Origin: Bacteroides fragilis
GTDB lineage: Bacteria; Bacteroidota; Bacteroidia; Bacteroidales; DTGW01
DNA length: 64,000 bases
Assembly: GCA_945889005.1 (NCBI GenBank)
Contig: CAMDBI010000009.1
Span: 1-64,000, forward strand
Direction of reading: 5' to 3'
Below are positions 7,352 to 33,582 of the stretch, one piece after another. The notes under the pieces were generated by a model that saw nothing but the letters and a program-made list of their open reading frames with translations, did no database searches and had not been told where the DNA came from. Every line of letters begins with the position of its first letter. Positions within the stretch are counted from its first letter, which is position 1. A program made the position numbers and the translations under genes.

Positions 7352-7370
7352 TTTATTTTCCGATACAGAA
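7352..7370. other. Left attachment-site direct repeat
   Basis: The 19-bp sequence TTTATTTTCCGATACAGAA matches 33564-33582 at 18 of 19 positions. On the minus strand it reads as the last codons of mnmE (Phe-Cys-Ile-Gly-Lys-stop) with AAA for the Lys codon instead of AAG. This is the signature of integration into a gene's 3' end, with the target duplicated at the far side. Confidence 0.8.
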
Positions 7371-7544: not shown

Positions 7545-8186
7545 TTAAGCAACTTCAACACTGCCAATGTAACGACTGTTTGAAACTTCTTTGCCATCAG
7601 CACTAATAAAAGCGATAAAGGCGTAAACAGTATCACCAGAATACTGGTTTGGAACTGTTAAGGTGTGAGCACCTGCACTGCGTGGCGAACCATCAGTTAC
7701 ATAAACCGCTTCGTTTCTGGTTGGATTGTAAGCCAGTACCATTGCACGGTCGGTAGGTCTTGCATTACCATCAATTGAGTTATCAACCCAGTTGAATTGA
7801 AGCACACCAGTCAAATCAGAACCAACTGTCGGGTTCAATGCTGCGGTTAAACCTCCTCTACTGATTAGAGCTGCCTCAAAATCAATAATAAAGTCGGGAT
7901 AATCGCCGATAATTGCGTTTTGTACATTGTACGACATCGCACTGTTAAACTCGGTCATTTTAACCGCATAATTGCGAAATCCGACCTTTAAGAAGCCCCT
8001 GAGAGGTTGCAAGAAACCTAACACAGTTGAGAACTTTGTACGTTGGTCAACCTGACCAGCCGTTTGAGGATTGGCTACACTTGCAGGTTTTACCCTCATG
8101 TAGTCGATTCCTTTCCAGTTTCCCCCGATAACGTTACCAACTTTACCAGAGAAACCGCCTAAGATACCTTGAGAAATTTTTCCCAT
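7545..8186 (-). CDS. DUF6266 family protein
   Basis: I recognise the N-terminal signature (MGKISQGILGGFSGKVGNVIGGNW, given here by its key residues GKISQGILGGFSGKVG) of the DUF6266 family. This is a Bacteroidota-specific family of about 210 residues that often lies in conjugative or integrative elements, and its function is unknown. The Gly-rich start is followed by a mixed alpha/beta body and a C-terminal half that looks like a fibronectin-III or Ig-type beta-sandwich (LQFNWVDNS, AMVLAYNPTRNEAVYVTDG, YAFIAFISADGKEVSNSRYIG). No signal peptide is visible. It is the leftmost gene of the element and has its own terminator. The upstream 230 bp to the next gene hold no other gene. Confidence 0.75.
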   Translation of the reverse strand: MGKISQGILGGFSGKVGNVIGGNWKGIDYMRVKPASVANPQTAGQVDQRTKFSTVLGFLQPLRGFLKVGFRNYAVKMTEFNSAMSYNVQNAIIGDYPDFIIDFEAALISRGGLTAALNPTVGSDLTGVLQFNWVDNSIDGNARPTDRAMVLAYNPTRNEAVYVTDGSPRSAGAHTLTVPNQYSGDTVYAFIAFISADGKEVSNSRYIGSVEVA

Positions 8187-8400: not shown

Positions 8401-8417
8401 AGCGGAAAAATTCCGCT
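8401..8417 (-). terminator. Hairpin at the stop codon of the 140-aa gene
   Basis: AGCGGAA and TTCCGCT form a 7-bp perfect stem with a 3-nt loop, overlapping the stop at 8416-8418. It is followed on the minus strand by the pyrimidine-rich TCTTTCTTCC. It is a plausible terminator without a perfect T-run. Confidence 0.5.
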
Positions 8418-8838
8418 ACCTTCTTCGGTACTTGTAGAAAATTGCTTTTCGGGCTTCTTCAATTAGTTTCAGGTTCTCGTGAAACTGCTTTTCTTTTAGT
8501 TCAAGTAGCTTCAAAATTTCAATGTTTTTCTGAAACTGGTTGATATTGGCTTTGGCTTCTACTTCCCCAGCTAAAATGCAGTTTCTTAAATCCCTGATGC
8601 TGATAAATGGGATAACTGAACCACGCAAAAAAGGATGAAAAGATTTTGAACGCCAAAGTCCGAAAAGAAGCCAGTAATAAAAATCTCGTTCGTTTTCGGA
8701 ATCCGAAGTAAAAACAAAACTGTTCGGACAAGGGATTTGAAGCGGTTTTCCGCTGTTCATTCCCTTGTTTAAGATGTAGAAATGTGGTTTGGAAAGTTGA
8801 TTACTTCCGCAATTGGATTTGATAATGTAAGTATTCAT
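8416..8838 (-). CDS. DUF6943-like small protein of integrative elements
   Basis: A 140-residue soluble protein. Features such as PHFYILNKGMNSGKPLQIPCPNSFV, given by the short cores YILNKGMNSGKP and CPNSFV, followed by FYYWLLFGLWRS and FLRGSVIPFI, match a family I associate with Bacteroidota conjugative transposons (DUF6943). The family name is from memory and unverified. The C-terminal 50 residues are a charged coiled-coil-like helix (EAKANINQFQKNIEILKLLELKEKQ). No function is known. It sits between DUF6266 and the long non-coding stretch at the element's left end, which supports an element-backbone role rather than cargo. Confidence 0.6.
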   Translation of the reverse strand: MNTYIIKSNCGSNQLSKPHFYILNKGMNSGKPLQIPCPNSFVFTSDSENERDFYYWLLFGLWRSKSFHPFLRGSVIPFISIRDLRNCILAGEVEAKANINQFQKNIEILKLLELKEKQFHENLKLIEEARKAIFYKYRRR

Positions 8839-10197: not shown

Positions 10198-12282
10198 TTA
10201 AATCAATTCTACCTGTTCCTCAAACGCTTGAACGATTAAGTCCATTATATCGTCTAATTGGTTCAATTTTTCAAGGCCAACTTCAACATCACCATTGCCC
10301 CATCTGCCTAAACCTGAAACATCTTTACATAGGCTGTTAGGGTCTTTAATCTTATCATATTGGATGTTTAGTGAAAGCCTTAAACGTTTTTTCTGTGGTA
10401 CAATATCAACAAAATTTGTTTGGGCTTTAAATGCAATGTAAAGTTTCTTAAACTCAACCCTTACCGATGAATCGAGGTTAAGGATTCGCTTTTCAAGATT
10501 ACGGTATAATTCAAGCATTTCATCCTTTAAATATTCAAAATGCTCTAAATCATAAACAACTGTTTCTTTGGATTCTTCTGGTACACGGTATAATTCAAGC
10601 CTATCACTTGGTAATACAGGGCAAGCCCAAATTTTGCAAGCAATATTAGACAACTTTGAAGCTCTGGTATTGATGGCTGTTTCATTCCATACTGATTCAC
10701 ATCTAACAGATTCATTAAGAATAAGTGGGCTTGTATTAAAACCACCTTCTATTGTTTTTTTTACAGAGAATGGCTTGTCAGATAATTCTGAATTATAACC
10801 TGTTAACGTTAAATTGCCTAAAGTATGAAGATATTTTTCCTTTACTTTTTCCCAATCTGCACCGAGTTCATTTTGCCATTCAACAGGAGTGTTCGGGTTT
10901 TGAGGCAGAATATGTTCAATGGTGTAATTTTCGGCATTTACCAGTTCTTTACGTTTGAAGTTTTCGAGAGATTCAAGTAAATAATTGCGTGAACGGAAAT
11001 TATAAACATCTTTAATCGCCAATTCTTTGATAAATTCTGAATCATTGGGAAACCTACGATAACTATCCATGAGAATGAATGCAGCCTTTACCGATTCTAA
11101 ATAAGTTTCACGTTTTATCCTTTTGTAAAGCGTTGCGAATGTTTTGTTTAAGCTGTTGGTTGGTATTCCGCAAATTGCACGGCGAAATACATAGTCTTTA
11201 ACCAAATCAATTATGGTCAGAAAATCATCTTTAGAAATAACTTCACTTTCAAAATCGTTGTAAACAGCTATTAAAAAGGGGTACGAAGTATCTATCCTTA
11301 ATTTTGATATTTCTTTGAATTTTTTTTGTAGAGCTTCATCTGTTTCCTTCTGTAAAGCAATTCTTACGTAAAACTTTGAGAAAGCATGTAAATCTTTAAC
11401 TGCATCGGATATTGTTTTAGGACTGTTTTTTGATTTCAGGAATTTTTTATATCGTTCGTAAACTTCTTCAATGTTCGGAATTGAAGATTCTTTCATAGTA
11501 AGGTAGTCCCTAACAAACCAAGGTAAAACAGTAATGTTGTCGCCAAAGCTTTGTTCCATCGGAAACCAATACTTATCATACAATGTTTTTTGGGTTTCTT
11601 GATTTTGTCCCATTAACACATAATTACGGATTAAGTCGGCTTGAGATAAATCTAAACCAGTTGAGTTTAAACTTTCAAAAATCAATTGAGGGTTATCTTT
11701 ATCCCTTTCAAGAATAACATCAACAATAATAAGCTTCTTAATTCCAGTATAAATAGCAATGACATTGTCTTTATGAATTGAATCCCTAAAAAACACAAAA
11801 TTCTCCTGAATACGCTTTGAAATATTGCTATCCTGGTCTATTGATTCTAATAGGTTTATGTAAGTGTTTTTATCGTTTCTTGTCAGAAGCAATTTGTATT
11901 TGGTATCATCTTTACGGTGCTTATTTACAAGATAAGTTTCCTGAACTTCTTCCCATGTTTCATCTTCGAGTTTTATATCTGGATGCTTTTGTAAGAATTT
12001 AATCAATGCCATTAGCATTAAAGAAACTGTTGTAAGCCGCTGCTGACCATCAATTACTAATAATTCAGGTACGCTGGTAATCGGAGAGTTATCGGGTTTA
12101 AAGTAAACAACAGAACCAATAAAATGAGAAATTTGGCTTTCATCATTTCCAACACGGACTATATCGTTTAATAATTGCTGACATTGCTTTAAATGCCATG
12201 AATAGGTTCTTTGGTAGATGGGGATGATGAATTGTTTTTTACCATCTAATAAACTGAGTAATTGGGCTTGCGTTGCTTCCAT
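10198..12282 (-). CDS. DUF262-DUF1524 (GmrSD/BrxU/SspE-like) nuclease, putative Argonaute partner
   Basis: The N-terminal DUF262 domain (ParB-like NTPase fold) shows YQRTYSW at residues 23-29 and DGQQR at 78-82, the two signature motifs for nucleotide binding and hydrolysis. A DUF1524 HNH-type domain follows, with EHILPQN at 456-462 and GNLTLTGYN at 489-497 holding the catalytic His and Asn. Residues about 590-694 resemble a DUF5655-type tail. The family includes GmrSD, BrxU and SspE, which cut modified or invading DNA. The 694-residue reading begins at ATG 12282; an upstream TTG at 12315 would overlap the pAgo stop. It starts 20 bp after the pAgo gene, so the two are very likely co-translated from one mRNA. 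It could instead be a free-standing type IV restriction enzyme. Confidence 0.85.
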   Translation of the reverse strand: MEATQAQLLSLLDGKKQFIIPIYQRTYSWHLKQCQQLLNDIVRVGNDESQISHFIGSVVYFKPDNSPITSVPELLVIDGQQRLTTVSLMLMALIKFLQKHPDIKLEDETWEEVQETYLVNKHRKDDTKYKLLLTRNDKNTYINLLESIDQDSNISKRIQENFVFFRDSIHKDNVIAIYTGIKKLIIVDVILERDKDNPQLIFESLNSTGLDLSQADLIRNYVLMGQNQETQKTLYDKYWFPMEQSFGDNITVLPWFVRDYLTMKESSIPNIEEVYERYKKFLKSKNSPKTISDAVKDLHAFSKFYVRIALQKETDEALQKKFKEISKLRIDTSYPFLIAVYNDFESEVISKDDFLTIIDLVKDYVFRRAICGIPTNSLNKTFATLYKRIKRETYLESVKAAFILMDSYRRFPNDSEFIKELAIKDVYNFRSRNYLLESLENFKRKELVNAENYTIEHILPQNPNTPVEWQNELGADWEKVKEKYLHTLGNLTLTGYNSELSDKPFSVKKTIEGGFNTSPLILNESVRCESVWNETAINTRASKLSNIACKIWACPVLPSDRLELYRVPEESKETVVYDLEHFEYLKDEMLELYRNLEKRILNLDSSVRVEFKKLYIAFKAQTNFVDIVPQKKRLRLSLNIQYDKIKDPNSLCKDVSGLGRWGNGDVEVGLEKLNQLDDIMDLIVQAFEEQVELI

Positions 12283-12302
12283 TATTGTAATGTTATGATA
12301 TT

Positions 12303-14426
12303 CTACAAAAACCAAAGGTTATCTTTCCCAAATTCGGGTATTTCGTAGCCATCGAAGTATGGGAACATTTCGGCAACCATTTCGGGGTACTTGATGGTTA
12401 CTGGTAAATTCTGCTGAATTAATGATTTCCAATACACACGACTAAACTGATATACCTGGTCTAATAATTCGCCTATCACTTTGGTGTCTTTTTCTAATTC
12501 TTTATTTGAACAGCTTATCGAAAGCTTTATCGGGAACGGATAACCCGCAATACCGGGAACAGGATAATTGTTGTATCGTGAGTTATTGAAAAGCAGGTAT
12601 CTGTTGAATCCGATATTGATGTATGTGCCACTCAGGGGCATTATTTCGGAATAATCTTCGTCGAATGCCACAAAATCGGTTGATTCGGTTTTGTTTATGC
12701 TGACAATAAACACAGGAATTTCGAGTCTCAATTCTTTTAAGCCGTCTTCAATGGGTTGCAGTTCGTCCTGATTCATGCTTTTGTAGAAGTGAATGACCAA
12801 CTTTTTTAGGCTTTTATTATGAACTACATAGGCTCTAACTGCATCGAGAATTGAACCTGCCAGTTCGTCTATTTCATTCTTTCGGAAACATTCGAAGTGA
12901 GTGAATTTACCCGTGTTTTGAAAACTAAAGGCACTGCCGATATATTGAACATTGGAATTGACATGCTTAAATGCACCAACGCCAACAATCAATTCGTTCT
13001 TTATTTGCGTGTCTAAACGCCACGGAATACCGTTTAACTTTGCCAGCATTGCAATAGCAATGTTTGGCAAACTGTTGTGATATTTGACTTTGGGGTTTAA
13101 TATTTTTTCGGCATCGAGAACCTGTGATAGTATCTTGTTTTTAAGTAATAGCTCTTTCAGCTTGTAATATATTGCCTTGCGTTTTTCGTCGTTGGTAGTT
13201 TTGCTGTGAGGGCTGATATAGATTGCAAAATATTTTACATCGTCCTGAAATTTACGCTGCCTGAGAAGTTCTTCAACTTTGGGCAATGGATCGTCTTTAT
13301 CATCGAACATGAAGCTAAACCCCTTTTCAAAATGATAGTTGATGTGTGAATACTTCTGCAAACCTTTAAAGTTTTCAAATTCACCATCGAAGTATTTTTG
13401 AATGTTTTCGGCTTTTTTAAAGTCAGACTTGTGGAAGATAAAGAATATATGCACGTTTTGGAAATCGCCTATATCGTAAGGCCCCCATTTATTCATGCCT
13501 GTTATTGGGGAAATATCTCTTCCAACAATACCATCTTTTTTGCCAAATATGAGGCTGTTACTATTGAAACTCACTTTCCCTTTACGGACTTCATCGACCG
13601 GAATAAAGCCTTTGGCATGTAATGGAATAACCGCTTTAAAACTATCGTTATTGAGGTGATTGTTGTAGAATTTGGTTATGTGATTACGGAATTTTAGGTA
13701 TTTATTGCCCCGTTCGGGTGCTTCGGTGCTTTGGTTTAGGGCAGAACGAATATCGAAGTTCCAAACAGGAAACGAGTTTACGGGATACCTGCGGGCTTCT
13801 TCTGGTAGCTCGGAATGTCGGTAAAGTTGTTCGTTGAAGATTACCCATGTAAACTTTTCCGGGGCAACATCTTTGTATAGGGATGCAAGGCTTTTCTTGA
13901 ATACTTTTGCTGTACTCTCGAACGATATAATCAGTTCGGGGTGCGAAGTGATGCGGGCAATTTGGATTTTAAGCGTGAATTTATCGAAATAGCGGTATTG
14001 CCAGTCTTCCAATTTCTCGGATGGCAACCAGACTTCGGTATCTTTAATAAAATTGGGGCTTACGATGTACCCATTGCTTTTGAAATAGCTGTAAACCTTA
14101 AAATTGTAGTATCGTTTTAGAATGCTGAACCCGTAACATGAGTTTTCGACTTTAGCCCTTACTTTTTCGCCCTGCTTGTTGAGTTTTTCAGTATATGAAG
14201 GGGTACAGGGCTTTGAAACAGCGAAGCTGTTAGGAAAAGCATTATCGAACGAAGTGAAATAATGCTCCTGTTTGCCAAAGTGTTCAATTACTTCGGTGGG
14301 TACAAGTGAATTGTGCACACGGTTTAAGCCCTCGGCTTCATCGGCAACAAAATGAAATGTAAACTCATCGGCAGGATGGGTAAACGTGAGAATGTTAAAG
14401 GTAAGATTCGGGGTCTTTTCTGCCAT
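12303..14426 (-). CDS. Long prokaryotic Argonaute with degenerate PIWI catalytic site
   Basis: The C-terminal half is a MID-PIWI module. In the MID domain Y420, K424, Q435 and K463 have the spacing of the pAgo/eAgo YKQK pocket that holds a guide 5' phosphate. The PIWI domain follows, with KLNGIPW, the C-terminal pattern LPVTIKYPEMVAE and a hydrophobic C-terminus (NLWFL) typical of Argonautes. The catalytic Asp positions look lost: IVGVGA with G484 instead of GxD, HFYK with Y548 instead of HRDG, and YPE with E682 instead of YAD. The protein should therefore bind guide and target without slicing. The first 400 residues fit divergent N/PAZ regions, and 707 residues is normal for long pAgos. The gene is flanked by RhuM (28 bp upstream) and DUF262-DUF1524 (20 bp downstream). 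The family call is from motifs, not alignment. Confidence 0.82.
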   Translation of the reverse strand: MAEKTPNLTFNILTFTHPADEFTFHFVADEAEGLNRVHNSLVPTEVIEHFGKQEHYFTSFDNAFPNSFAVSKPCTPSYTEKLNKQGEKVRAKVENSCYGFSILKRYYNFKVYSYFKSNGYIVSPNFIKDTEVWLPSEKLEDWQYRYFDKFTLKIQIARITSHPELIISFESTAKVFKKSLASLYKDVAPEKFTWVIFNEQLYRHSELPEEARRYPVNSFPVWNFDIRSALNQSTEAPERGNKYLKFRNHITKFYNNHLNNDSFKAVIPLHAKGFIPVDEVRKGKVSFNSNSLIFGKKDGIVGRDISPITGMNKWGPYDIGDFQNVHIFFIFHKSDFKKAENIQKYFDGEFENFKGLQKYSHINYHFEKGFSFMFDDKDDPLPKVEELLRQRKFQDDVKYFAIYISPHSKTTNDEKRKAIYYKLKELLLKNKILSQVLDAEKILNPKVKYHNSLPNIAIAMLAKLNGIPWRLDTQIKNELIVGVGAFKHVNSNVQYIGSAFSFQNTGKFTHFECFRKNEIDELAGSILDAVRAYVVHNKSLKKLVIHFYKSMNQDELQPIEDGLKELRLEIPVFIVSINKTESTDFVAFDEDYSEIMPLSGTYINIGFNRYLLFNNSRYNNYPVPGIAGYPFPIKLSISCSNKELEKDTKVIGELLDQVYQFSRVYWKSLIQQNLPVTIKYPEMVAEMFPYFDGYEIPEFGKDNLWFL

Positions 14427-14454: not shown

Positions 14455-15453
14455 TTACGGTTTTAATTTTTTCAGTTTATTAATATCTTCCTCAATCTCT
14501 TTCAAACTCGCTTCTTTGGAAAGTTTCTTTTGTTCTTCCTTGTATTTTTCGTACTCTACGCCCGACTTGTTTAATGCCATTTGATGGCTTATTGTGCCAG
14601 CGTGTGCGAGTAGTTCCCTACCATTTAATTGCAGAATAGAATCGAGGCGTTCAATCCAATCTTTCATGTACATGGGGGTTTGCTGTTGTGCCATTGTTTC
14701 GGCAAAAGCAAGGTATTGTTCTACCAAAAGCCCTAAAAGCTTTATTTCGGCTTCGTTTAGGTAATTTTTGGCTACGCTTACATCAGCTTTCTTAATGCTT
14801 ACAGCACTTTTTTTGTCATACGATTGCATTCCAAGTAAAGGCAAAGTTGCATCGACACGCCTGTACACCAATTCGGCTGCTGTTTGCTGACTAATAGCCC
14901 AAAGCAGTTTGTTTTGTACTACTTTAAAGAATGTAATGGTTTTTTCGTCGTTGGCATCGTAATCGATGCTGGTTGAATATATATCTTTGATTTTTTGATA
15001 AAAGAAACGTTCGGAAATTCGTATCTCCCTGATGCGTTCTTGCAGTTCGGAGAAATAGTTCATTGAATTGCCCGACTTAAAACGCTCATCGTTCAGCGTA
15101 AAGCCCTTTACTATGTATTCTTTAAGCCTTTGGGTAGCCCAAATACGGAACTGTGTACCTTGTTGCGATTTTACCCGGTAGCCAACGGAAATAATTACAT
15201 CGAGGTTGTAGTAGTTAACATCGTATGATTTGCCATCGGAAGCAGTTGTTCGGAAATTCCGAACAACTGAATTTTCGTACAGTTCTCCTTCCTCGAAAAC
15301 ATTTTTAATGTGTTCACTTATAGTAGCTTTAGACTTTTGAAAAAGGTCGCAAAGCTGGGCTTGTGTGAGCCAAACGGTTTCTTCTTCGAGGCGAACATCG
15401 AGTTTTATGCTACCCTCGGAGTTTTGATATATTAGTATTTCGCCAGTGTTCAT
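14455..15453 (-). CDS. RhuM family protein, copy 2 (inside the defence cassette)
   Basis: Paralogue of the protein at 6309-7298: residues 62-117 and most of 119-208 are identical. The N-terminal HTH-like region (AQLCDLFQKSKATISEHIKNVF) differs at about ten positions within 27 residues. That pattern suggests retargeting of a DNA- or protein-binding surface on a constant core. It lies 40 bp after hsdR and 28 bp before the pAgo gene, in the same direction, so one transcript may cover all three. RhuM genes are often neighbours of type I restriction genes. Whether RhuM serves the restriction system, the pAgo module or neither is unknown. Confidence 0.85.
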   Translation of the reverse strand: MNTGEILIYQNSEGSIKLDVRLEEETVWLTQAQLCDLFQKSKATISEHIKNVFEEGELYENSVVRNFRTTASDGKSYDVNYYNLDVIISVGYRVKSQQGTQFRIWATQRLKEYIVKGFTLNDERFKSGNSMNYFSELQERIREIRISERFFYQKIKDIYSTSIDYDANDEKTITFFKVVQNKLLWAISQQTAAELVYRRVDATLPLLGMQSYDKKSAVSIKKADVSVAKNYLNEAEIKLLGLLVEQYLAFAETMAQQQTPMYMKDWIERLDSILQLNGRELLAHAGTISHQMALNKSGVEYEKYKEEQKKLSKEASLKEIEEDINKLKKLKP

Positions 15454-15493: not shown

Positions 15494-18484
15494 TTAACCT
15501 ACCAAGCCTCTTACTTTCTGGTCGTACAAATCATTAAACCAAAGTCTTTTAAACATATAGTTTACACGGTCTTCCGTAAGTTTATTATAGAATTCAAGTT
15601 TTGTATTAATGAAGTTTAATAGTTCATTATCTATTTCCTCATTGAATTTATCCTGAATGTTGTCTTTACTATTTTTAGAATTAAAGAAACTCATCAATTC
15701 TTCATTGGAATAGATGTTTTTACGCATTCTTTCAAATTCTACCTTATCTTCATCTTTTAATTCCAAACCATAAGTATCGTTAAGCACTTTGATAATTTTA
15801 GTTAACCATTCAATTTCTTCAGATACTGCCGAAGCATCACCTCCCGGAGACATACCTTGCATTGCTGTATCCTGGCTTTGCAGTTGAAGGTCGGTGGTAA
15901 ATTGATGTTGCAGTTTATAACTATCCAGATTTATTTCCTCTAAAACCTCTATAGGCATTGGATTTGGATTGGATGGAAGCTTTTTAAATAAATCGGTCAG
16001 AAATACATAGAATTTTTCAAGCTGAACATCTGTAAAAGTGATTATTTGAGATAGAAATCTGTATAACCGAACGTAGCTTTTAATAGATGCTTTTAATGAA
16101 ACTTTAGCATCATCATCCAATTTTGATTCAAAACGATTTACAACTTCGTTTAATATTGGTTGTAGTTTTTCTTTATGGTCACCTTTTGTAAAGAATATCT
16201 TTGCATAAGCCTCTATATCATTTTTATATATGATGTTGTGAAATTCAATTTTTTGCAGAACATCATATAAACTATTGGGGTCTGTTTGGTCATCAAGTTC
16301 CATGTAATTACTACCATAGTAAGCCTGAAAATCAGTTTGAACTTGTTCCGGGTCGTTTACAAAGTCAAGAACCATGGTAGTATCTTTGCCAGGTGCAGTC
16401 CTGTTTAAACGACTCAATGTTTGCACAGTGCTGGTACCACCTAATTTTTTATCTACAAACATTGTATGCAATAAAGGCTCGTCAAAGCCTGTTTGATACA
16501 TATTTGCAACAATTAGGAATCTGAATTGTGGTAACTTAAAGGCATCAGGAATTTCAATTTTGCCACCTAAATTATTCATATTCTCTTTTGTGTAATCCTG
16601 ACCAGTTTCAGCATCTGTAACTGTACCACTAAAAGCAACGAGGGCACCATAAGGCAATTTCATTTCACGTAATATATCATCAAATTTACGCTTAAACCTA
16701 ACAGCATGTAAACGAGAACGTGTAACTAACATAGCTCTGGCTTTCCCTTGTATTTCATTTTGTGTTTGTGCTACAAAATGTTCAATCATTACACGAGCCT
16801 TTTTTTCTATTGCATGGTCCTGTAAATCGACATAAGATGACAATAACCGAACTGTTTTCTTTTTTTCATATTCTTTGTCATCTATTTCAGACCGTTTTAT
16901 GAGCTTATAGTAACGTTTCCAACTCATATAATTCTTTAGTACATCAAGAATAAAGCCTTCTTTAATAGCTTGTTCCATAGTGTACAAATCGAAAGCTTCT
17001 TTCTTGCCATTTCTTATAGTACCAAATAATTCGATGGTCTTAGGTTTTGGTGTTGCCGTAAAAGCAAAGAATGAAATATTCGTCTGGTCGCCCTTTCGTT
17101 TAATTTCTTCCTCAATAAGTTCATCAAGTTCTTTGTCTAATTTATCCGCATTTTCAGCATCTTCAAGAGATAATGCTTTTCTTAGATGTCGAGCAGCTTC
17201 ACCGGATTGAGAACTATGCGCTTCATCAATAATTACTGCATAGGTTTTATCTTTATTTTGAGCTATAGTTTCTGAAATAATCGGGAACTTTTGAAGAGTT
17301 GTTACGATGACCCTTTTACCCTGTTCTATTGCAGCTTTTAATTCCTGTGCTGTTTTACTTTCATCTATATATTCAACAACACCGGGAGTTTGTTCAAACT
17401 GACGGATATTATCCTGAATTTGCCTGTTTAATACTCTCCGGTCAGTTACTACAATAACACTGTTAAATAAAGCTCTATCGTCATCGGGATTTCTGAAAAA
17501 ATCGGATAACCGATGAGCAAGCCAAGAAATTGTATTTGACTTACCGGAACCAGCTGAATGTTGTATCAGATATTTTTGACCAACACCATCTATTTTAACT
17601 GCTTCTAATAAATTTTGTACAGCTCGTCGTTGATGGTAGCGAGGGAAAATGAGCCTTATTTTTTTGTCTTTACGTAGTGATTTGCTTTTGTTATCCCAAT
17701 AATTTTCTTCGGTTTCTTGTATATTGATGTAATTCTGTATCAGGTCTATTATTGAATCTTTACGCAAAACATCATGCCATAAGTATGCTGTTGCATAATC
17801 GTCATCCTGAGTATTAATAAGTGCTTTATTAAAAGGTAAAAAGAATGTGCTTTTTCCTTTTAGCTCGGTACACATGCTCACTTTTTCGGTACTTACCGCA
17901 AAATGGACAAGGCAACGTTTAAATTCAAAAAGCTTTTCCTTCGGGTCTCTGTCTTCGATATATTGTTTTATTGCATGGTGTAAATACTGACCAGTTAAAG
18001 CATTTTTTAACTCAATAGTGATAACCGGAATACCATTAATGAACAAAACAATGTCAATTGAATTTTGATTTTTTTTTGAATATCTGAGCTGGCGAACAAT
18101 AGTTAAACGATTTTTCTTATACCACTCGCTATGTTCAGGCGTTTTGCTATGAACCGGTTTGAAATAAATTAAATCAAGGGTTTGACCACGGTCTTTAACT
18201 TTCTCGCGGAAAACATGCAATGTTTTATATTTATTGAGATTTTCAGCAACACGCTCTAATATTTTACTATCTGTGGAATTTCCATACTGATTTGTTAAGG
18301 CTTCATATTTTTCAGGTTGAGTATCTTTTATAAAATCAATTACATCTTCGGGAATAAGGCATAAATCCTTGTCGTAACTCGAAGACTCCTTCTCCGAATA
18401 TTCAGGAAATTCGGGCTGTGCATATTTTGTAAGGTACTTTACAATATGCTCTTCAAAATGTATTTCTTTTGTTCCTTCTGACAT
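15494..18484 (-). CDS. hsdR: Type I restriction enzyme, restriction/translocase subunit HsdR
   Basis: A 996-residue HsdR. The N-terminal PD-(D/E)xK nuclease has D144 and E158-x-K160 (IELKN). The SF2 translocase has Walker A HSAGSGKSN at 309-317, DEAH at 420-423, FTATP near 505, QTGFDEP near 680 and LSRLNRTAPG near 705. The C-terminal part is helical and should bind the methylase core. With HsdM and HsdS it would translocate unmethylated foreign DNA and cut it. It begins 13 bp after the rmuC-like gene on the same strand. All catalytic motifs are present, so it looks functional. Confidence 0.95.
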   Translation of the reverse strand: MSEGTKEIHFEEHIVKYLTKYAQPEFPEYSEKESSSYDKDLCLIPEDVIDFIKDTQPEKYEALTNQYGNSTDSKILERVAENLNKYKTLHVFREKVKDRGQTLDLIYFKPVHSKTPEHSEWYKKNRLTIVRQLRYSKKNQNSIDIVLFINGIPVITIELKNALTGQYLHHAIKQYIEDRDPKEKLFEFKRCLVHFAVSTEKVSMCTELKGKSTFFLPFNKALINTQDDDYATAYLWHDVLRKDSIIDLIQNYINIQETEENYWDNKSKSLRKDKKIRLIFPRYHQRRAVQNLLEAVKIDGVGQKYLIQHSAGSGKSNTISWLAHRLSDFFRNPDDDRALFNSVIVVTDRRVLNRQIQDNIRQFEQTPGVVEYIDESKTAQELKAAIEQGKRVIVTTLQKFPIISETIAQNKDKTYAVIIDEAHSSQSGEAARHLRKALSLEDAENADKLDKELDELIEEEIKRKGDQTNISFFAFTATPKPKTIELFGTIRNGKKEAFDLYTMEQAIKEGFILDVLKNYMSWKRYYKLIKRSEIDDKEYEKKKTVRLLSSYVDLQDHAIEKKARVMIEHFVAQTQNEIQGKARAMLVTRSRLHAVRFKRKFDDILREMKLPYGALVAFSGTVTDAETGQDYTKENMNNLGGKIEIPDAFKLPQFRFLIVANMYQTGFDEPLLHTMFVDKKLGGTSTVQTLSRLNRTAPGKDTTMVLDFVNDPEQVQTDFQAYYGSNYMELDDQTDPNSLYDVLQKIEFHNIIYKNDIEAYAKIFFTKGDHKEKLQPILNEVVNRFESKLDDDAKVSLKASIKSYVRLYRFLSQIITFTDVQLEKFYVFLTDLFKKLPSNPNPMPIEVLEEINLDSYKLQHQFTTDLQLQSQDTAMQGMSPGGDASAVSEEIEWLTKIIKVLNDTYGLELKDEDKVEFERMRKNIYSNEELMSFFNSKNSKDNIQDKFNEEIDNELLNFINTKLEFYNKLTEDRVNYMFKRLWFNDLYDQKVRGLVG

Positions 18485-18497
18485 ATTAATGCTTGGT

Positions 18498-20144
18498 TTA
18501 TTCTTCTATTATATTACCTATTGCTTGGTTTACCAGTTCTGTATTTAATTCCTTTTTACTCTTTAAACCAAGTTTTTTTAGCTTTTCTGCTTGTAAAACA
18601 AGGTTGTCCTGACCTGTGCTTAATTGTTTAAAGGCATCAGAAAACTTATTTTGAGCTTTATCGATGTATTCACCGACACCAGTAAGATTATCAACGAAAC
18701 CAACAAATTTATCATACAATTTAGCTCCTCTGTCCGCAATTGCTAAAGCATTCTGATTTTGGTATTCACGTTTCCAAAGGTCAACAATAAGCTTTAATGA
18801 AGTAATAAGGTTTGTTGGATTTAATAGTAAAATTCGTTTGTCGTATGCGAAATTCCATAAATCAGGGTCTCCTTGCAAGGCTGCAATATAAGCTGGTTCA
18901 CTTGGAATAAACATCATTACAAAATCAAGGGCTTTATTATAATCATCATATCCTTTGGCGCTAAGTGATAAAATGTGATTTTTTATTGCAGTAACATGAG
19001 CATCCAATTCTTTCTTTTGTTCTTCGGCGTCAGAAGATGCAATCAGGCGAGTAAATGCGTTTAATGATACTTTTGAATCAATAATGACGCTTCTGTTATC
19101 AGGATATTTAATGACAGCATCAGGGCGCATTTTTTTACCTTCTGCATCAGATTTTAATGGAACTCCGTTTTCATCTAATAACTGATATTCCATAAAATAT
19201 TCTTCATCTTTACGAAGGCCTGATTTTTCAAGAATACTTTCCAAAATCATTTCGCCCCAGCGGCCCTGAGTTTTGGCCTCACCTTTTAAGGCTTTTGTAA
19301 GATTTCGGGCTTCTTCGCTAATTACCTGGTTTAATAGAGCTAATTCCTTTACTTTTTCGCCTAATGAAAACCGTTCTTTTGATTCTTTGTCGTAAACCTC
19401 TTCAACCTTGGTTTTAAATTCAGTTAAGTTTTTCCCCAATGGTTCAAGAATATCTTTTAAATTGGTTTTATTGAGTTCTGTAAACTTCTCCGACTTGGTT
19501 TCTAATATTTTGTTTGCAATGTTTTCAAATTCGGTATTGAACTTTTTACCCATTGCTTCCATTTCCTCTTTCTGGGTTTGCAACTTTTCATTTAATGCCT
19601 TATTATTGGCTGTTGCTGAAGCTAAAAGCTCATTAGCTTTATTAAACTCATCACGGGTATTTTTAAGTTCTTTCTTTAACTCTTCAAAGTCGTTTAACTT
19701 ATCGTTTAAACCTTTTATCTGGGCATTTGCAGTAGCCAGTGCCTGACTGGTTTGAGACAATTCGCTTTTGATATTTTTTAATTCTTCTTTTTGTGCTTCT
19801 AATTCTTTATTCTTATCGGAAATAGTTTGATTTGCAGCGTTTAAATTGGCATTAGCTGTTGATAACTGATTGTTCAAAGAAGTTTGGTCAGTAGCCATAT
19901 TTTTAATGGTTTCCTTCGAGCTTTCCAACTCTTTTTCTTTGGATTCAATATTTGAAGTTGCAGTTTGCAATTGAGAAGTGCTAGTAGCTTTATAAGCCAC
20001 AAATTCTTTTTCCAATTCACTATATTTTAATTGTGCATTGTCTTTCTCTGCTTGCAAAGATTTAATGGCAGCCGATTTGCCAATGAACCAACCAATTGCA
20101 GCCCCAAGGATTAAACCAAGTAATATAAAACCTATTATTTCCAT
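18498..20144 (-). CDS. rmuC: RmuC-domain protein with N-terminal membrane anchor and long coiled coil
   Basis: Residues about 3-21 are a single hydrophobic segment (IIGFILLGLILGAAIGWFIG) and residues about 30-220 a long coiled coil. From about 270 the RmuC domain follows, with landmarks GRWGEMILESILE, MRPDAVIKYPD, VIIDSKVSL, MMFIPSEPAY and LLLNPTNLI. RmuC proteins carry a PD-(D/E)xK-related fold and limit DNA inversions in E. coli. They are frequently found between hsdS and hsdR in type I loci, as here (10 bp after hsdS, 13 bp before hsdR). The membrane anchor implies action near the inner face of the cytoplasmic membrane. The role in restriction is not established. Confidence 0.9.
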   Translation of the reverse strand: MEIIGFILLGLILGAAIGWFIGKSAAIKSLQAEKDNAQLKYSELEKEFVAYKATSTSQLQTATSNIESKEKELESSKETIKNMATDQTSLNNQLSTANANLNAANQTISDKNKELEAQKEELKNIKSELSQTSQALATANAQIKGLNDKLNDFEELKKELKNTRDEFNKANELLASATANNKALNEKLQTQKEEMEAMGKKFNTEFENIANKILETKSEKFTELNKTNLKDILEPLGKNLTEFKTKVEEVYDKESKERFSLGEKVKELALLNQVISEEARNLTKALKGEAKTQGRWGEMILESILEKSGLRKDEEYFMEYQLLDENGVPLKSDAEGKKMRPDAVIKYPDNRSVIIDSKVSLNAFTRLIASSDAEEQKKELDAHVTAIKNHILSLSAKGYDDYNKALDFVMMFIPSEPAYIAALQGDPDLWNFAYDKRILLLNPTNLITSLKLIVDLWKREYQNQNALAIADRGAKLYDKFVGFVDNLTGVGEYIDKAQNKFSDAFKQLSTGQDNLVLQAEKLKKLGLKSKKELNTELVNQAIGNIIEE

Positions 20145-20154
20145 ACTTTAATTT

Positions 20155-21510
20155 TTAATTTGAACTATTATTGGATTGCCAATCTCTTACATCTATTTTG
20201 CCCGTTACAGCTTCGGAAATGATGGATTGGCGGTATTCTTTTAGTTTTCCGATTTGAGTTCTAAGAGCATCCAATGTTTTTAAGAATGTTGCATTTGAGC
20301 TTTGTAAAGATTCCAGTATTTGATTTTGAATTTGCAGAGGAGGAAGGATTAATTGTAAATTAGAAAATTTCTCTAGTGATATTCTTCTTAATGCAACACC
20401 GCTTAAAAGTCTATCAATTTGATAATTAATAACATTAGACCGTAACAAATATTCAAAATAGAAAGGATTTATTAGGTCAGGTTTAGGTCGGATTATAATC
20501 AAAGATGAAGCTACTACGAATTCTTTGTTTTCAGTGATAACCGTTGTTTTGCCGATAGTCCCATCTTTACTATATAGAATATCATTAATTATTGGTTTGC
20601 ATCCTGTGCGTACTAAGTATTCATAACTTTCTTTGGTTGTTTTCAAACAACTGTTCCAGTCAATTTCGCCTCTTGTTAAATCCACAGTAGAAATAAATGG
20701 AAAATCATCACTTGATGTATCAGGTGAAATATGAGCGCCATCAGTAATTAAGTTTGTTAAATGCTTTGACTTAGTAACTTTCCAATCTGTTGGAATTTTC
20801 CCCAACCAATCAATGCCACTATCTTTTATTTTAATATTGGGGTCAAGACCTTTGGTAACCGCTTCATTAATAATTGCCTGCTGTTTTTCTTTTAAGAGTT
20901 CTATTTGTTTTTCCTTTCGGTTTATGATTTCATCAATGAGGAAGGTTTGTTGGTTGAGAAAATATACAATTGAAAACTGTTCTTGAATTGAAGGTAATGG
21001 AAAATTAAAATTTCTAAGATTAGACAAACTTACACCCCCAATTAAACCTGTCAATGCGTTGTAGAATTGAGATTGAAAATGATTGCTTTGAAGAATATAA
21101 AAAATGAATTTTGATGTAACTTCATCTTCTACATTAAAACAAGCCAGCTTATTTACAAAATACACATCTTGGTTTGTAAACCCCATTTTTCTACCCGCGC
21201 TGCCACCTTCGATGCAAAGCAATGATGAATATTTAGGTGCAATTTTAAGATTTTCGAAATTTTTCGGAATTCGTGTTCCATTCTGATAGTTTATTTCTGT
21301 TGTTTCAACATTAATATCTTTTGATGCTATATATGGTAATTCTTCATCATTTTCAGATTCAAATTGTAGTTTATAATCATCATTTAAGCTGTTGCCATTA
21401 TAAATATTAGCAACATATTTTAATTTAATCATATCCCAACTAATGGGCACTTCAGTTATAAAATTGTTTTTTAACACTTTATATTGTTCGTATTTGCATA
21501 AGTTTCTCAT
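20155..21510 (-). CDS. hsdS: Type I restriction enzyme, specificity subunit HsdS
   Basis: A 451-residue HsdS with two target recognition domains (about 15-150 and 235-390). Each is followed by a conserved helical spacer (LPSIQEQFSIVYFLNQQTFLIDE near 165, and LPPLQIQNQILESLQ near 395), the second ending in LKEYRQSIISEAVTGKIDVRDW. The two TRDs set a bipartite target for methylation and restriction. The start ATG overlaps the hsdM stop as ATGA at 21507-21510, showing translational coupling. TRDs are the variable part of such systems and cannot be translated into a recognition sequence by eye. Confidence 0.93.
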   Translation of the reverse strand: MRNLCKYEQYKVLKNNFITEVPISWDMIKLKYVANIYNGNSLNDDYKLQFESENDEELPYIASKDINVETTEINYQNGTRIPKNFENLKIAPKYSSLLCIEGGSAGRKMGFTNQDVYFVNKLACFNVEDEVTSKFIFYILQSNHFQSQFYNALTGLIGGVSLSNLRNFNFPLPSIQEQFSIVYFLNQQTFLIDEIINRKEKQIELLKEKQQAIINEAVTKGLDPNIKIKDSGIDWLGKIPTDWKVTKSKHLTNLITDGAHISPDTSSDDFPFISTVDLTRGEIDWNSCLKTTKESYEYLVRTGCKPIINDILYSKDGTIGKTTVITENKEFVVASSLIIIRPKPDLINPFYFEYLLRSNVINYQIDRLLSGVALRRISLEKFSNLQLILPPLQIQNQILESLQSSNATFLKTLDALRTQIGKLKEYRQSIISEAVTGKIDVRDWQSNNSSN

Positions 21511-23288
21511 CCCAAAAGTTCTTTTAAAAGTTGAGTTATCCCTTTTTGTTCGGTTGTACCGTATTCCAAAGCTTCAATTTCTGCTTTAATTTCAGAAGAA
21601 GGACGCAATGCTTTGTATTCGTAATAGTATTTGGTAAAATTTATTTCGTAACCAATACGGGTTTTATCATAATCAATCCACGCATTTGGCAAATTGGGCA
21701 GTACCTCATTTTTAAAATATTCTTCAATATCCTCGGTTAAAGGAATGTTTTCTTTATCCCTCTTTTTTGAATCGGGTTTAAAGCCCCCTTTTTTATCTTT
21801 GACTGGCCTACCCTTTGCATCGTATTCCGGTTGTTCAATCGTTATCTGATAGTAACCAAAATCGTCGTTGTTGTATATCTTAGAATATTGATTTTCTTCG
21901 AATCGAGTATATATTTCAACCAGTTTTGCAATATGATTACTTTCAATTTTATTGCGTTTGTTGCCCAAACTTCTTTTTTCGGGGCGACAAAAACCTTCTA
22001 TACTATTAGCCTTGTCTTCAAGTATATTAGCATTTATTAGTTGTACCTTGCCTTTACGGCGGGCAGGCTTTTTATTATTTAAGAACCATATATAGGTGTT
22101 TATGCCAGTGTTGTAAAATAAATCCTTTGGCAGTGCAATGATGCAATCGAGCAAGTCGCTGCTAATTATCCATTTACGGATATCGCTTTCACCACTTCCG
22201 GCACCGCCTGAAAATAGGGGAGAACCATTAGTAACTACGGCAATTTTACCTCCTTCACGCTCCATTTTGCTTATCATGTGTTGTAAAAAGAGGAGCTGAC
22301 CATCGCTTTTCCCTGGTAATCCGGCATAAAAACGACCGGCGGGATTTGCACTCTCATTTATAATAAAATCGGCATCTTTATTCCATGTTACACCATAAGG
22401 AGGATTGGCAAACTGGTAATGAAACTGCTTATCGACAAAACGGTCTTCGGTAAAACTGTTACCATGTCTTATATTATCAGCATTTTCGCCTGTAATTAAA
22501 GCTTCCGATTTAGCAATTGCATAAGATTGTTCATTAATCTCCTGACCGAATGTTTTAATGGTTGGCTTGTGTTCGCTACCAACACATAATTCGTCGAGAA
22601 TATAGTTTTTAGCAAGGCTAATCATACCGCCAGTTCCTAAGGTCGGGTCATAAATTGTCCTGATAATACCTGATTGAGTAAGAATATCTTTCTCTGTACT
22701 AAAAACAATCTTTATCATTAGTTCAATTACATCACGAGGTGTAAAGTGTTCCCCAGCAGTTTCATTGCTTTGCTCGTTTGATATCCGGATTAATTCTTCG
22801 AAAACATAACCCATATCGTGATTATCAACAGTATCGGTATGTAAATCGACTTTACAAATGGCTTCTACCATCTGGTAAAGCAGTTTATTCTTTACTAAGC
22901 GGGCAAGTACCTTATCGAATTGAAAATTCTCAATAATGTCCCTTACTTCTTTATTGAATCCATTCAGGTAATTATTAAAGTCGATTTCAATTGTTTTGGT
23001 ATTTTCTTTTAATGATTCTAATGTGTGTTTAGAAGTATTATAAAATTGTAAGCCACCTGCAGCTTTCCTTAAAATAGGGTCGAGTTTATCTTCACTCACT
23101 TTATCTTTAAAGTTGTTGTAGGCATCACGCACTTTATGGTTTACAGGTTCAAGAATACAATCGAGCCTGCGAATAACAACGAAGGGAAGTAGAACATCGC
23201 CAATCTCGTTCTTTTTAAATACATTCCAAAGTACCTTATCGGTAATTTGGAAGATAAACCCTACATCTACTTTTCTATTGTTTGCCAT
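21507..23288 (-). CDS. hsdM: Type I restriction enzyme, N6-adenine methyltransferase subunit HsdM
   Basis: A 593-residue HsdM. The helical N-terminal domain (about 1-150) is followed by the AdoMet-binding motif DPTLGTGGM at 214-222 and the catalytic NPPY at 295-298, the signature of N6-adenine methyltransferases. GEHFTPRDVIELM at 179-191 is also typical. It methylates host sites and forms the M2S core to which HsdR binds. Upstream are a 69-bp gap and a 15-bp palindrome at 23340-23354, so hsdM may have its own promoter besides read-through from the WYL/ATPase genes. Downstream hsdS overlaps by 4 bp. Confidence 0.95.
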   Translation of the reverse strand: MANNRKVDVGFIFQITDKVLWNVFKKNEIGDVLLPFVVIRRLDCILEPVNHKVRDAYNNFKDKVSEDKLDPILRKAAGGLQFYNTSKHTLESLKENTKTIEIDFNNYLNGFNKEVRDIIENFQFDKVLARLVKNKLLYQMVEAICKVDLHTDTVDNHDMGYVFEELIRISNEQSNETAGEHFTPRDVIELMIKIVFSTEKDILTQSGIIRTIYDPTLGTGGMISLAKNYILDELCVGSEHKPTIKTFGQEINEQSYAIAKSEALITGENADNIRHGNSFTEDRFVDKQFHYQFANPPYGVTWNKDADFIINESANPAGRFYAGLPGKSDGQLLFLQHMISKMEREGGKIAVVTNGSPLFSGGAGSGESDIRKWIISSDLLDCIIALPKDLFYNTGINTYIWFLNNKKPARRKGKVQLINANILEDKANSIEGFCRPEKRSLGNKRNKIESNHIAKLVEIYTRFEENQYSKIYNNDDFGYYQITIEQPEYDAKGRPVKDKKGGFKPDSKKRDKENIPLTEDIEEYFKNEVLPNLPNAWIDYDKTRIGYEINFTKYYYEYKALRPSSEIKAEIEALEYGTTEQKGITQLLKELLG

Positions 23289-24331: not shown

Positions 24332-25906
24332 TTAGAGAAGGCTTAATGTTAATAATGCTGATTCGTCATAAAAGCCTTTTCCAAACTCATCAATAAATTT
24401 ACCATCTTCACGGTAATTCATTTTCCACTGTTCTTCTTTATCAAAATATAATACACAGAAAGGATTCTCATTAGGTTTTACTTCAAACTCATTCTCTTTA
24501 ACTAACAATTGGGTTTTCCTTATTAGATATTCTGAATGAGTTTCGACAATTAATTTTATGTCATTTTTACTTACTTCAAAAAACAATTCAGCAAGCTTAC
24601 TTTGTAATGCAGGATGCAGATTTAATTCAGGTTCTTCAATTAATACCAATGGCTTGATTGAATTTATTTTGCTTTTATGGATAATACAAGCAAGTCGCAG
24701 AATCAACAACATTGCTTGAATAGAACCCATTCCCTTATCAGCAAGAGGTAATTTATTGCCACCTAATTCGATTTCAACCTGATATGCTTCACCTGCGCAT
24801 AGTCCAATATTTATTTTTTCGCCAATTTCAAAATATTCACTACCCATCCATTTTTTTACAAAAAGGAAAGCTTCGCTTGCAGGCATTTTATCAATACCTA
24901 ATTGATAATAATCGTGAATTGACTGTGCAAGTGCATTGTTTTTATCTCTAATAGAAAATAGTGCGGATTGCTTTGCCGGATTGGCTCCCAAGTAAATAAA
25001 TGTCTGTTCCTGGGTTTTTTGAATAAATTCTTTAATTGAATCCTCAATTTTTAATCTTTCCTGATAAAAGGAACGGTAATTAATTTTTTCCGGTTCTTCA
25101 TATTCGCCTGAATCACTTCTGCTTTCAAAGTATTTGTTAATTGCATCAATTTGAAATGAGTCAAAAATTTCTTTCAACGTTTTTTCTTTACCGTATTCGT
25201 AGGAAACTGAGAAATTGTCTACTTTACCATATTCTTCTATTGGTTCCTTAACTATTGAGTTATCTTCTTCACTATCGATATTGGAATCTATATCATTAAA
25301 GCCATGAGCAAGCATATTCCTTCTGCTCCTCAATAAATTTAACTTATCCACTTTTTCGAGGTATTCCTTACTTGATTTCTTTAAATCACTTTTATTGAGT
25401 TCAAATTGAAGGGTTTCAATTTCATTTTCAAGGATTTGTAACTGACTGCTACTCGTTTTTTCCTCTTTTGATGTAAAATCCTCGCTAACAGTTATTGATG
25501 AAATTTGAGGCTCAATTTTTATCGAGATATTTTCACTTTGATTCTTAATTAAAAATTGATGCACATCAGCGCAGGTTTTATCTGGTGTACCCGAAATGGA
25601 TATTTCTATCAGATAGTTGTCAATCTGATAATTAAACCAGATAAAATCTTCCTTTCTTTTTAATGCAGTGTTATTAAGTGCTCTGCTATATGTAACTATA
25701 TTGGCATCTTCCAAAACATTATTGCCAAAATGAAATTCTTTCAGGTTACCTGATTTTAAGTAATCGGATATAAGGAGTAATGCTTTTACCAATGTGGATT
25801 TACCAGAATTATTTCTTCCAACCAAAAAGGTAATATCTTTATATTCTAAAGGTTTGAAATCTACAAACCGTCTGAAATTTTTAAAACCAATTTTATTCAT
25901 ATACAA
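24332..25906 (-). CDS. AAA15/DUF3696-type ABC-like ATPase
   Basis: An SMC/RecF-like ATPase of 524 residues. It has Walker A GRNNSGKST at 30-38, an inserted coiled coil around 150-215, Walker B IEEPELNLHP at 423-432 and the H-loop ETHSE near 455. The C-terminal GFYDESALLTLSLL is typical of DUF3696 ATPases. No TOPRIM domain follows, so it is not a complete OLD nuclease. Such ATPases act as sensors in defence systems, with the neighbouring gene as effector. It follows the WYL regulator by 21 bp and precedes the 323-aa gene by 2 bp. The start could also be the Met two codons downstream. Confidence 0.85.
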   Translation of the reverse strand: MYMNKIGFKNFRRFVDFKPLEYKDITFLVGRNNSGKSTLVKALLLISDYLKSGNLKEFHFGNNVLEDANIVTYSRALNNTALKRKEDFIWFNYQIDNYLIEISISGTPDKTCADVHQFLIKNQSENISIKIEPQISSITVSEDFTSKEEKTSSSQLQILENEIETLQFELNKSDLKKSSKEYLEKVDKLNLLRSRRNMLAHGFNDIDSNIDSEEDNSIVKEPIEEYGKVDNFSVSYEYGKEKTLKEIFDSFQIDAINKYFESRSDSGEYEEPEKINYRSFYQERLKIEDSIKEFIQKTQEQTFIYLGANPAKQSALFSIRDKNNALAQSIHDYYQLGIDKMPASEAFLFVKKWMGSEYFEIGEKINIGLCAGEAYQVEIELGGNKLPLADKGMGSIQAMLLILRLACIIHKSKINSIKPLVLIEEPELNLHPALQSKLAELFFEVSKNDIKLIVETHSEYLIRKTQLLVKENEFEVKPNENPFCVLYFDKEEQWKMNYREDGKFIDEFGKGFYDESALLTLSLL

Positions 25907-25927: not shown

Positions 25928-26953
25928 TCAAACTGCATTCTTGTTTTTATAATTATTTCCAATTGCATCAGCTCTTTCAGACATTCTATTTCTTAATGAT
26001 ACCGGAGACAAAACTTCAATACCTTCACCAAGGGAAAGAAGCAAAGATTCAAGCTCATAATTTGGAATGAGACTCAAAGTAATTGTCGTAAAATCGGTTT
26101 GTTTTTCTTTAATTTTTTGAGAACCGTGAAGCGGTTTGGTCTGAATATATGGAAAAAGCTGATTACTAACTTTTAATACAATAAGCTGAGTTGGTTCATT
26201 ATTTTGAACACTAACACCAATAACATCATCGAAATACTCTTCAAAATCAATGGAATCGTTTATAAGATACTTCTCTTTGCTTTCAACTATTGAAACAATT
26301 CTATCTAATGCAAGATTAATAATTAGTTTATTCTTGTCATTTTTACCGAAGATATACCAACGATTGTTGTATTGTTTAAGAAAATAAGGATGTAAAACAA
26401 TTGTATAGGGTACATCTTGCTTGAAACTTCTATATTCAATATCGAGTGTCTTCTGATATAAAATAGCATTATACAAAGGAGTTATATAGTCTAAGCCTTT
26501 AAGATAGTCGTTTTGCTCAAATTGAATTATTTGATACTTGGTATGTGACAAACCTAAACCTGAATCAAGCCGGGCAGTGATTTCACTAACCCATTCAAAT
26601 TGTGGCATCCCTTTGAATCTTGAAAGTGTTAAGAGAGCTTCCTTTAGCTGCCTTTCTTCGCTTTCGTTAAGTGGTTGATTATTTATGGAAAAGGTCAAAT
26701 CAGAATATCTGTAAAATACTTTATGACCATCACGGTTATGCTCCAAAGGAATGTTCCAACCTTGCGGGCTTTCCATAAACCTAATATCATCAAAAACCTG
26801 TCGTTTTTTTATGCCTTCATTAATGCCAGTAAAATCATAAATAGCATCATTGCACGCATTAATAAGGTCATCGATATAATATTTTCGGCCTGGATTCCGA
26901 AAACACTTATCCAATGTTTGATATCTTATTATTGCATGTTTATTTGTAGCCAC
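25928..26953 (-). CDS. WYL-domain transcriptional regulator
   Basis: A 341-residue regulator. The N-terminal region (about 1-75) looks like a winged HTH. The middle carries the WYL domain, with RSFKQDVPYTIVLHPYFLKQYNNRWYIFG given by its cores LHPYFLKQYNNRWYIFG and NLALDRI near 215-235. A WCX-like C-terminal extension ends near ESLLLSLGEGIEVLSP. WYL proteins sense nucleic acids or nucleotides and repress or activate phage-defence operons (BrxR, CapW). It sits at the head of the cassette, 9 bp after the XRE gene and 21 bp before the ATPase gene, so it probably controls this operon. Confidence 0.85.
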   Translation of the reverse strand: MATNKHAIIRYQTLDKCFRNPGRKYYIDDLINACNDAIYDFTGINEGIKKRQVFDDIRFMESPQGWNIPLEHNRDGHKVFYRYSDLTFSINNQPLNESEERQLKEALLTLSRFKGMPQFEWVSEITARLDSGLGLSHTKYQIIQFEQNDYLKGLDYITPLYNAILYQKTLDIEYRSFKQDVPYTIVLHPYFLKQYNNRWYIFGKNDKNKLIINLALDRIVSIVESKEKYLINDSIDFEEYFDDVIGVSVQNNEPTQLIVLKVSNQLFPYIQTKPLHGSQKIKEKQTDFTTITLSLIPNYELESLLLSLGEGIEVLSPVSLRNRMSERADAIGNNYKNKNAV

Positions 26954-33563: not shown

Positions 33564-33582
33564 TTTACTTTCCGATACAGAA
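33564..33582. other. Right attachment-site direct repeat (3' end of mnmE)
   Basis: TTTACTTTCCGATACAGAA, 18 of 19 positions identical to 7352-7370. On the minus strand it encodes the last mnmE codons TTC TGT ATC GGA AAG plus TAA. Confidence 0.8.

What the first reader, a model, noticed from the sequence alone, without database searches (positions are those of the whole stretch)
10198..14426. Inactive long Argonaute paired with a DUF262-DUF1524 nuclease: candidate undescribed defence system
The pAgo keeps the guide 5'-phosphate pocket (Y420, K424, Q435, K463, with 4- and 11-residue spacings) but lacks PIWI catalytic Asp residues (G484, Y548, E682 instead). Known inactive long-B pAgos depend on a co-encoded effector nuclease or membrane protein. 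The only gene directly after this pAgo, 20 bp away, is a GmrSD/BrxU/SspE-like NTPase-HNH protein with intact YQRTYSW, DGQQR and EHILP motifs. Hypothesis: guide-directed recognition by pAgo activates or recruits the DUF262-HNH protein. I am not aware of DUF262-DUF1524 as a described pAgo effector.
Basis: partly seen in the sequence, partly recalled or inferred. Interest (0 to 1): 0.93.

Follow-up and report, generated by a model that had tools for sequence, protein, structure and literature searches.

The report
Island Argonaute beside separate restriction gene
A catalytically dead bacterial Argonaute sits next to a restriction-type nuclease gene, but a survey shows the two are separate, interchangeable defence genes carried on the same kind of mobile island, and the Argonaute usually manages without that nuclease.

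Summary
Window 14426-12303(-) encodes a 707-aa long-B-like pAgo with an intact guide-binding pocket and no catalytic Asp. Twenty bp downstream, 12282-10198(-) encodes a 694-aa DUF262-HNH-DUF5655 (GmrSD-type) protein with intact motifs. The adjacency recurs: 9 genomes of several Bacteroidota families have this DUF262 gene 7-20 bp after a pAgo. A dedicated pAgo-effector pair is nevertheless unlikely. (1) Only 8 of 81 loci of this pAgo clade carry it, scattered on the pAgo tree (7 changes forced; 8.7 by shuffling). (2) pAgos 96-98% identical to carriers lack it, with dN/dS 0.05-0.07 between non-carriers. (3) Junctions are cassette-like: one island lacks exactly the DUF262 cassette. (4) DUF262 proteins 96% identical sit beside pAgos 57% identical. 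(5) A member of the same DUF262 clade ends a type I RM operon in a genome without detectable pAgo; more distant full-length homologues examined are pAgo-free. Both genes are cargo of a 26-kb island in mnmE (att 7357-7370 / 33569-33582) with VirE_N and DUF3987 genes, matching the VirE-N-associated long-B group noted in 2023. Best reading: two independent defence modules in one operon. How this dead pAgo works without a fixed partner stays open.

The parts
12303..14426 (-). Catalytically inactive long-B-type pAgo, 707 aa; usual last defence gene of the island cargo
10198..12282 (-). DUF262-HNH(GmrSD_C)-DUF5655 protein, 694 aa; GmrSD/type IV-like restriction cassette
   Evidence: motifs intact; the model of this protein was poor
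14455..15453 (-). RhuM-family protein directly upstream of pAgo (28 bp gap)
   Evidence: PF13310 1.3e-100; RhuM at -1 of pAgo in 7 other loci
15494..18484 (-). Type I restriction subunit HsdR
18498..20144 (-). RmuC-family protein inside the type I RM operon
20155..21510 (-). Type I specificity subunit HsdS
21507..23288 (-). Type I methylase HsdM
24332..25906 (-). AAA_15/AAA_21 ATPase (OLD/AbiEii-like)
25928..26953 (-). WYL/WCX regulator
27373..29124 (-). Island backbone: PriCT_2-DUF3987 primase/helicase-like protein
   Evidence: conserved in island relatives
29124..30206 (-). Island backbone: BT4734-like/VirE_N protein
30869..31894 (-). Island backbone: DUF6617 protein
31891..32985 (-). Island backbone gene next to mnmE, presumed integrase (named from position and conservation; no domain search was run on it)
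   Evidence: conserved at 61-63% beside mnmE in other islands
33565..34959 (-). mnmE, host gene used as integration site
33569..33582 (.). attL: last codons of mnmE (TTCTGTATCGGAAA on the coding strand)
7357..7370 (.). attR: exact 14-bp copy of the mnmE tail, distal island end
   Evidence: equivalent copies past pAgo in other loci
7545..8186 (-). Island right-end backbone: DUF6266 protein
   Evidence: same place in other islands
8416..8838 (-). Island right-end backbone: DUF6943 protein

Best explanation
The two genes are independent defence modules in the cargo operon of one mnmE-integrated mobile island. Shown: the pAgo ORF and the DUF262 ORF behave as separate exchangeable cassettes, and the pAgo is kept under purifying selection without the DUF262 gene. 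Inferred: the pAgo loads a short guide, probably RNA as in RsAgo and EcAgo, and recognises invading plasmid or phage DNA; without a fixed neighbour it acts by binding alone or through an effector encoded elsewhere. Also inferred: the DUF262 protein works like GmrSD/BrxU/TgvAB, its DUF262 domain hydrolysing NTP and licensing its HNH domain to cut DNA with foreign (probably modified) bases, which complements the upstream type I system that cuts unmodified DNA. Fixed adjacency would follow from homologous exchange between islands in the slot between the conserved pAgo 3' end and the island's right end.
For: Adjacency in only 8 of 81 clade loci. DUF262 carriers scattered on the pAgo tree, 7 changes forced vs 8.7 shuffled. 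L028 vs L031: pAgo 97% aa identical, then the island right end resumes 5 bp after pAgo in L031 but 2,128 bp after it in L028. L068 vs L063/L067: homology covers only the pAgo ORF, from about 13 bp before it to 12 bp after it. The genomes of L031, L033, L036 and L029 have no strong DUF262 match at all. dN/dS 0.05-0.07 between DUF262-less pAgos. DUF262 96% vs pAgo 57% identity in L061/L068. L109, inside the DUF262 clade, ends an hsdR-M-S operon in a genome without detectable pAgo. Full-length homologues on cyanobacterial and alphaproteobacterial plasmids and in a phage have no annotated pAgo neighbour. A search from the island primase finds pAgo in the three closest islands, none with the DUF262 gene. 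Precedent for GmrSD-type genes embedded in a type I RM cluster: PMC11411939.
Against: Nine of ten members of the close DUF262 clade are pAgo-linked, always at +1 with 7-20 bp spacing, and the label needs only 2 changes on the DUF262 tree, such as one gain and one loss. The count is biased, since seven were found through pAgo and one is the window; of the two found by DUF262 alone, one is linked (G879) and one is not (G1227). No island with this DUF262 at another position was seen.
Confidence: 0.76

Rival explanations
1. The DUF262-HNH protein is an optional, dedicated effector: guide-directed target recognition by the pAgo activates or recruits it, as bAgaN is activated in BPAN.
For: Recurrent +1 position with 7-20 bp spacing in 9 genomes; pAgo-linked DUF262 proteins cluster on the DUF262 tree, 2 changes vs 7.5 shuffled; known long-B systems have the effector just downstream of pAgo (PMC10620215).
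Against: Near-identical, constrained pAgos lack it; DUF262 proteins 96% identical sit beside pAgos 57% identical; a same-clade DUF262 occurs without pAgo; no pAgo-specific feature was seen in the DUF262 proteins, whose DUF5655 domain is equally conserved in pAgo-free homologues. In BPAN/BPAS/BPAM pAgo and effector coevolve in separate subclades, unlike here.
Confidence: 0.13
2. The DUF5655 domain is a shared adaptor through which different nucleases (DUF262-HNH at +1; an HsdR_N-like 303-aa protein at -1) dock on this pAgo clade.
For: All 14 DUF5655-bearing ORFs among 1,059 ORFs of the surveyed loci lie at -2, -1 or +1 of pAgo.
Against: RhuM proteins, a different family, are concentrated the same way (10 of 11 at -2 or -1), so single-gene cassettes may simply collect at the end of the cargo operon; DUF5655 is conserved in pAgo-free homologues; the linked cases are few lineages.
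Confidence: 0.04
3. The DUF262 protein cooperates with the type I RM system, not with pAgo.
For: Homologues follow HsdS in L109 and lie beside or near type I RM genes in L090, L091, L111, L118 and L119.
Against: Aequorivita L011 and L013 share pAgo and DUF262 (97-99% identical) behind different upstream genes, and L017/L018 have a ResIII-type system instead.
Confidence: 0.07

Closest known systems
VirE-N (og_54)-associated long-B pAgo subclade of Song et al. 2023 (PMC10620215)
   Same: Inactive long-B pAgo with a VirE_N gene several genes upstream on the same strand; function stated there to be open.
   Different: In the passages read, that paper does not describe the mnmE island, its att sites, the ORF-precise cassette exchange or a DUF262 neighbour.
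BPAN / BPAS / BPAM systems (long-B pAgo plus bAgaN, bAgaS or bAgaM)
   Same: Inactive long-B pAgo with a gene directly downstream.
   Different: There the effector is constant within subclades and coevolves with pAgo; here the downstream gene changes between near-identical pAgos.
RsAgo (5awh, 6d8p) and AfAgo
   Same: Closest solved folds (Z 31 and about 26); no catalytic tetrad; YK guide pocket.
   Different: About 16-21% sequence identity; island setting.
GmrSD / BrxU / TgvAB modification-dependent restriction enzymes; SspE
   Same: DUF262 with DGQQR and an HNH-type GmrSD_C domain with intact motifs; type IV genes embedded in type I RM clusters are known (PMC11411939).
   Different: Carries an extra C-terminal DUF5655 domain; substrate unknown.

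Membership tests
Long-B pAgo | Full-length Argonaute fold (not short pAgo) | tested here: met
   Model pLDDT 90, aligned to RsAgo over residues 5-706, Z 31.1, 612-621 residues
Long-B pAgo | Substituted DEDX catalytic residues | tested here: met
   G484 invariant, Y548 and E682 nearly invariant in 52 homologues; aligned with AfAgo, EcAgo, RsAgo sites
Long-B pAgo | YK-type 5'-guide pocket in MID | tested here: met
   Y420, K424, Q435, K463 invariant; YK is typical of long-B (PMC6299218)
Long-B pAgo | Place in the long-B branch of a tree with long-A and short pAgos | tested here: inconclusive
   No such tree was built; best profile matches in PDB are AfAgo, EcAgo and RsAgo, ahead of all others
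BPAN/BPAS/BPAM-type effector pair | Effector gene constant in the pAgo subclade and coevolving with pAgo | tested here: not met
   8 of 81 loci; scattered on pAgo tree; identity mismatch
BPAN/BPAS/BPAM-type effector pair | Target-dependent activation of the effector | not testable with these tools
   Needs biochemistry
GmrSD family (type IV restriction) | DUF262 and GmrSD_C (DUF1524) domains with intact motifs | tested here: met
   PF03235 1.3e-34, PF07510 7.1e-23; DGQQR, EHIxPQN conserved
GmrSD family (type IV restriction) | Cleavage of modified DNA | not testable with these tools
   Needs biochemistry
mnmE-integrated mobile island | Direct repeat of the mnmE 3' end at the distal end | tested here: met
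   14/14 bp at 33569-33582 and 7357-7370; mnmE-tail copies 2.7-6 kb past pAgo in other loci

The most novel reading that the evidence does not exclude
This clade of inactive island-borne pAgos uses swappable, optional effectors, of which the DUF262-HNH-DUF5655 protein is one: guide-directed target binding would switch on a GmrSD-type nuclease when that gene happens to be present.
Probability: 0.12. Interest if true: 0.75.

Novelty: new member of a known kind. Interest (0 to 1): 0.38.

Why it matters
The pairing as a new defence system is probably not real. The survey gives a more useful question: an inactive Argonaute, kept under strong purifying selection across Bacteroidota mobile islands, has no constant neighbouring effector. 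Either it works by binding alone, or its effector is in trans. The survey also suggests why earlier neighbourhood studies linked pAgos to HsdS and efflux genes: these are other cargo of the same islands.

Tried and rejected
Literature search for Argonaute plus DUF262: five papers; the most relevant one, read with the find tool, treats them as separate topics. AlphaFold of the DUF262 protein from eight close sequences gave pLDDT 45 and was not used. Viral contigs: no relative of the DUF262 protein by single-sequence query, one clade pAgo (L103). Plasmids and phages: no close pAgo; DUF262 homologues at most 49%. DUF5655 as a pAgo adaptor was considered and set aside because RhuM shows the same positional concentration. 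Association with one RM type was considered and set aside. A joint model of the two proteins could not be run; a full pAgo tree with long-A and short members was not built.
Full report
What is there. The pAgo (14426-12303, minus strand, 707 aa) and the DUF262 protein (12282-10198, 694 aa) are intact ORFs 20 bp apart. The second protein is GmrSD_N + GmrSD_C + a C-terminal DUF5655 domain, with DGQQR, YQRTYSW and EHILPQN intact and conserved. The pAgo has an invariant Y420/K424/Q435/K463 pocket and G484/Y548/E682 where catalytic residues belong. Its closest sequence profiles with structures are AfAgo, EcAgo and RsAgo, and its model (pLDDT 90) aligns to RsAgo over its whole length, Z 31.

Setting. 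The genes lie at the end of the cargo of a mobile island. The island runs from the 3' end of mnmE (33565-34959) to a 14-bp copy of the mnmE tail at 7357-7370, about 26 kb. Its backbone is a presumed integrase, DUF6617, VirE_N and PriCT_2-DUF3987 on one side and DUF6943 and DUF6266 on the other. The cargo between them includes a WYL regulator, an AAA protein, a type I RM operon with RmuC, then RhuM, pAgo and the DUF262 gene. The same backbone and order occur in other Bacteroidota; mnmE-tail copies lie 2.7-6 kb beyond pAgo in several. Starting from the island primase alone in 296 genomes, the three closest other islands (46-54% identity) all carry a pAgo of this clade and none carries the DUF262 gene. 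Three of the more distant ones showed no pAgo in the stretches fetched, and one could not be judged because the contig ends. Song et al. 2023 reported a long-B subclade with VirE-N genes 2-8 genes upstream and left its function open (PMC10620215); this island pAgo fits that description.

Survey of the pAgo. A scan of about 85,000 species genomes gave 80 loci, almost all labelled Bacteroidota. This DUF262 gene follows pAgo in 7 of them plus the window: Aequorivita (2), Roseivirga, a Cyclobacteriaceae bacterium, Owenweeksia, Psychroserpens and a Crocinitomicaceae bacterium. A ninth case (G879) came from a DUF262 search in the family of Aequorivita. The gap is 7-20 bp. In the other loci the next gene is a Fur-like or AraC regulator of an efflux cluster, an unrelated gene, or a gene on the other strand.

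Dependence of pAgo on DUF262. On an 80-tip pAgo tree the carriers are scattered: 7 changes forced, 8.7 expected by shuffling. Owenweeksia L028 has DUF262; its 96-97%-identical pAgo relatives L031, L036, L033 and L029 do not, and their genomes have no strong DUF262 match. The L028/L031 alignment shows the island's right end starting 5 bp after pAgo in L031 and 2,128 bp after it in L028: presence or absence of exactly one cassette. L068 against L063 and L067 is 94-96% identical in DNA over the pAgo ORF only, with different flanks. pAgos lacking DUF262 have dN/dS of 0.05-0.07 between themselves (L063/L067, L031/L033, L036/L029). So the pAgo is maintained without it.

Dependence of DUF262 on pAgo. 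On the DUF262 tree the nine pAgo-linked proteins and one unlinked protein (L109) form one fully supported clade, with 2 changes of label against 7.5 shuffled. It is weakened by ascertainment, since seven were found through pAgo and one is the window; among cases found by DUF262 alone, one of two is linked. L109 closes an hsdR-hsdM-hsdS operon outside any such island in a genome where pAgo was not detected. Homologues at 45-59% identity are pAgo-free where examined. Within the linked set, L061 and L068 have DUF262 proteins 96% identical beside pAgos 57% identical.

Mechanism. I commit to two independent modules. DUF262-HNH: NTP-driven, probably modification-dependent cleavage, as in GmrSD, BrxU and TgvAB (PMC10952713; PMC11411939); inferred from family and motifs. 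pAgo: guide-directed recognition of invading DNA without cleavage; inferred from fold and residues. Its effector step is unknown, and no constant neighbour was found apart from the island backbone. Fixed adjacency is explained by homologous exchange in the slot between the conserved pAgo 3' end and the island end; inferred from the junctions. Optional cooperation is not excluded (about 12%).

Limits. The genome survey returned only the best 80 of 207 relatives. ORF calls in the loci were mechanical. The DUF262 model failed. The plasmid annotation tables are incomplete. 'No pAgo' in genomes means no match of this clade's query or profile, and those empty searches carried the tool's own warning that they had no positive control, although the same kind of search recovered pAgo where it was present.

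Noticed in passing
window 6309-7298 and 14455-15453: Two RhuM-family genes 91% identical; the first lies just outside the island's right att site, so it may belong to a second, tandem island or an older remnant.
   Followed up: partly
window 18498-20144: An RmuC-family gene inserted between hsdS and hsdR of the type I operon.
   Followed up: no
window 7409-7420 and 33427-33438: A 12-bp direct repeat (GGGCAACAAATA) just inside both island ends, possibly integrase arm sites.
   Followed up: no
L021, L024, L036, L039, L040, L041: A roughly 303-aa HsdR_N-like + DUF5655 protein (PDC-S18-like) lies immediately or one gene upstream of pAgo.
   Followed up: partly
L044 10161-11963: A different DUF262-type gene (600 aa) 105 bp after pAgo, not of the window's clade.
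   Followed up: no
L004 1520-2927: The pAgo of a genome in the window's own family is followed by a 358-aa gene and a gene that looks RelA/SpoT-like by eye (untested).
   Followed up: no
L010, L012, L014, L025-L027 and others, after pAgo: Fur- or AraC-regulated metal or multidrug efflux genes follow pAgo, apparently as island cargo, which may explain the reported 14% association of long-B pAgos with efflux transporters.
   Followed up: partly
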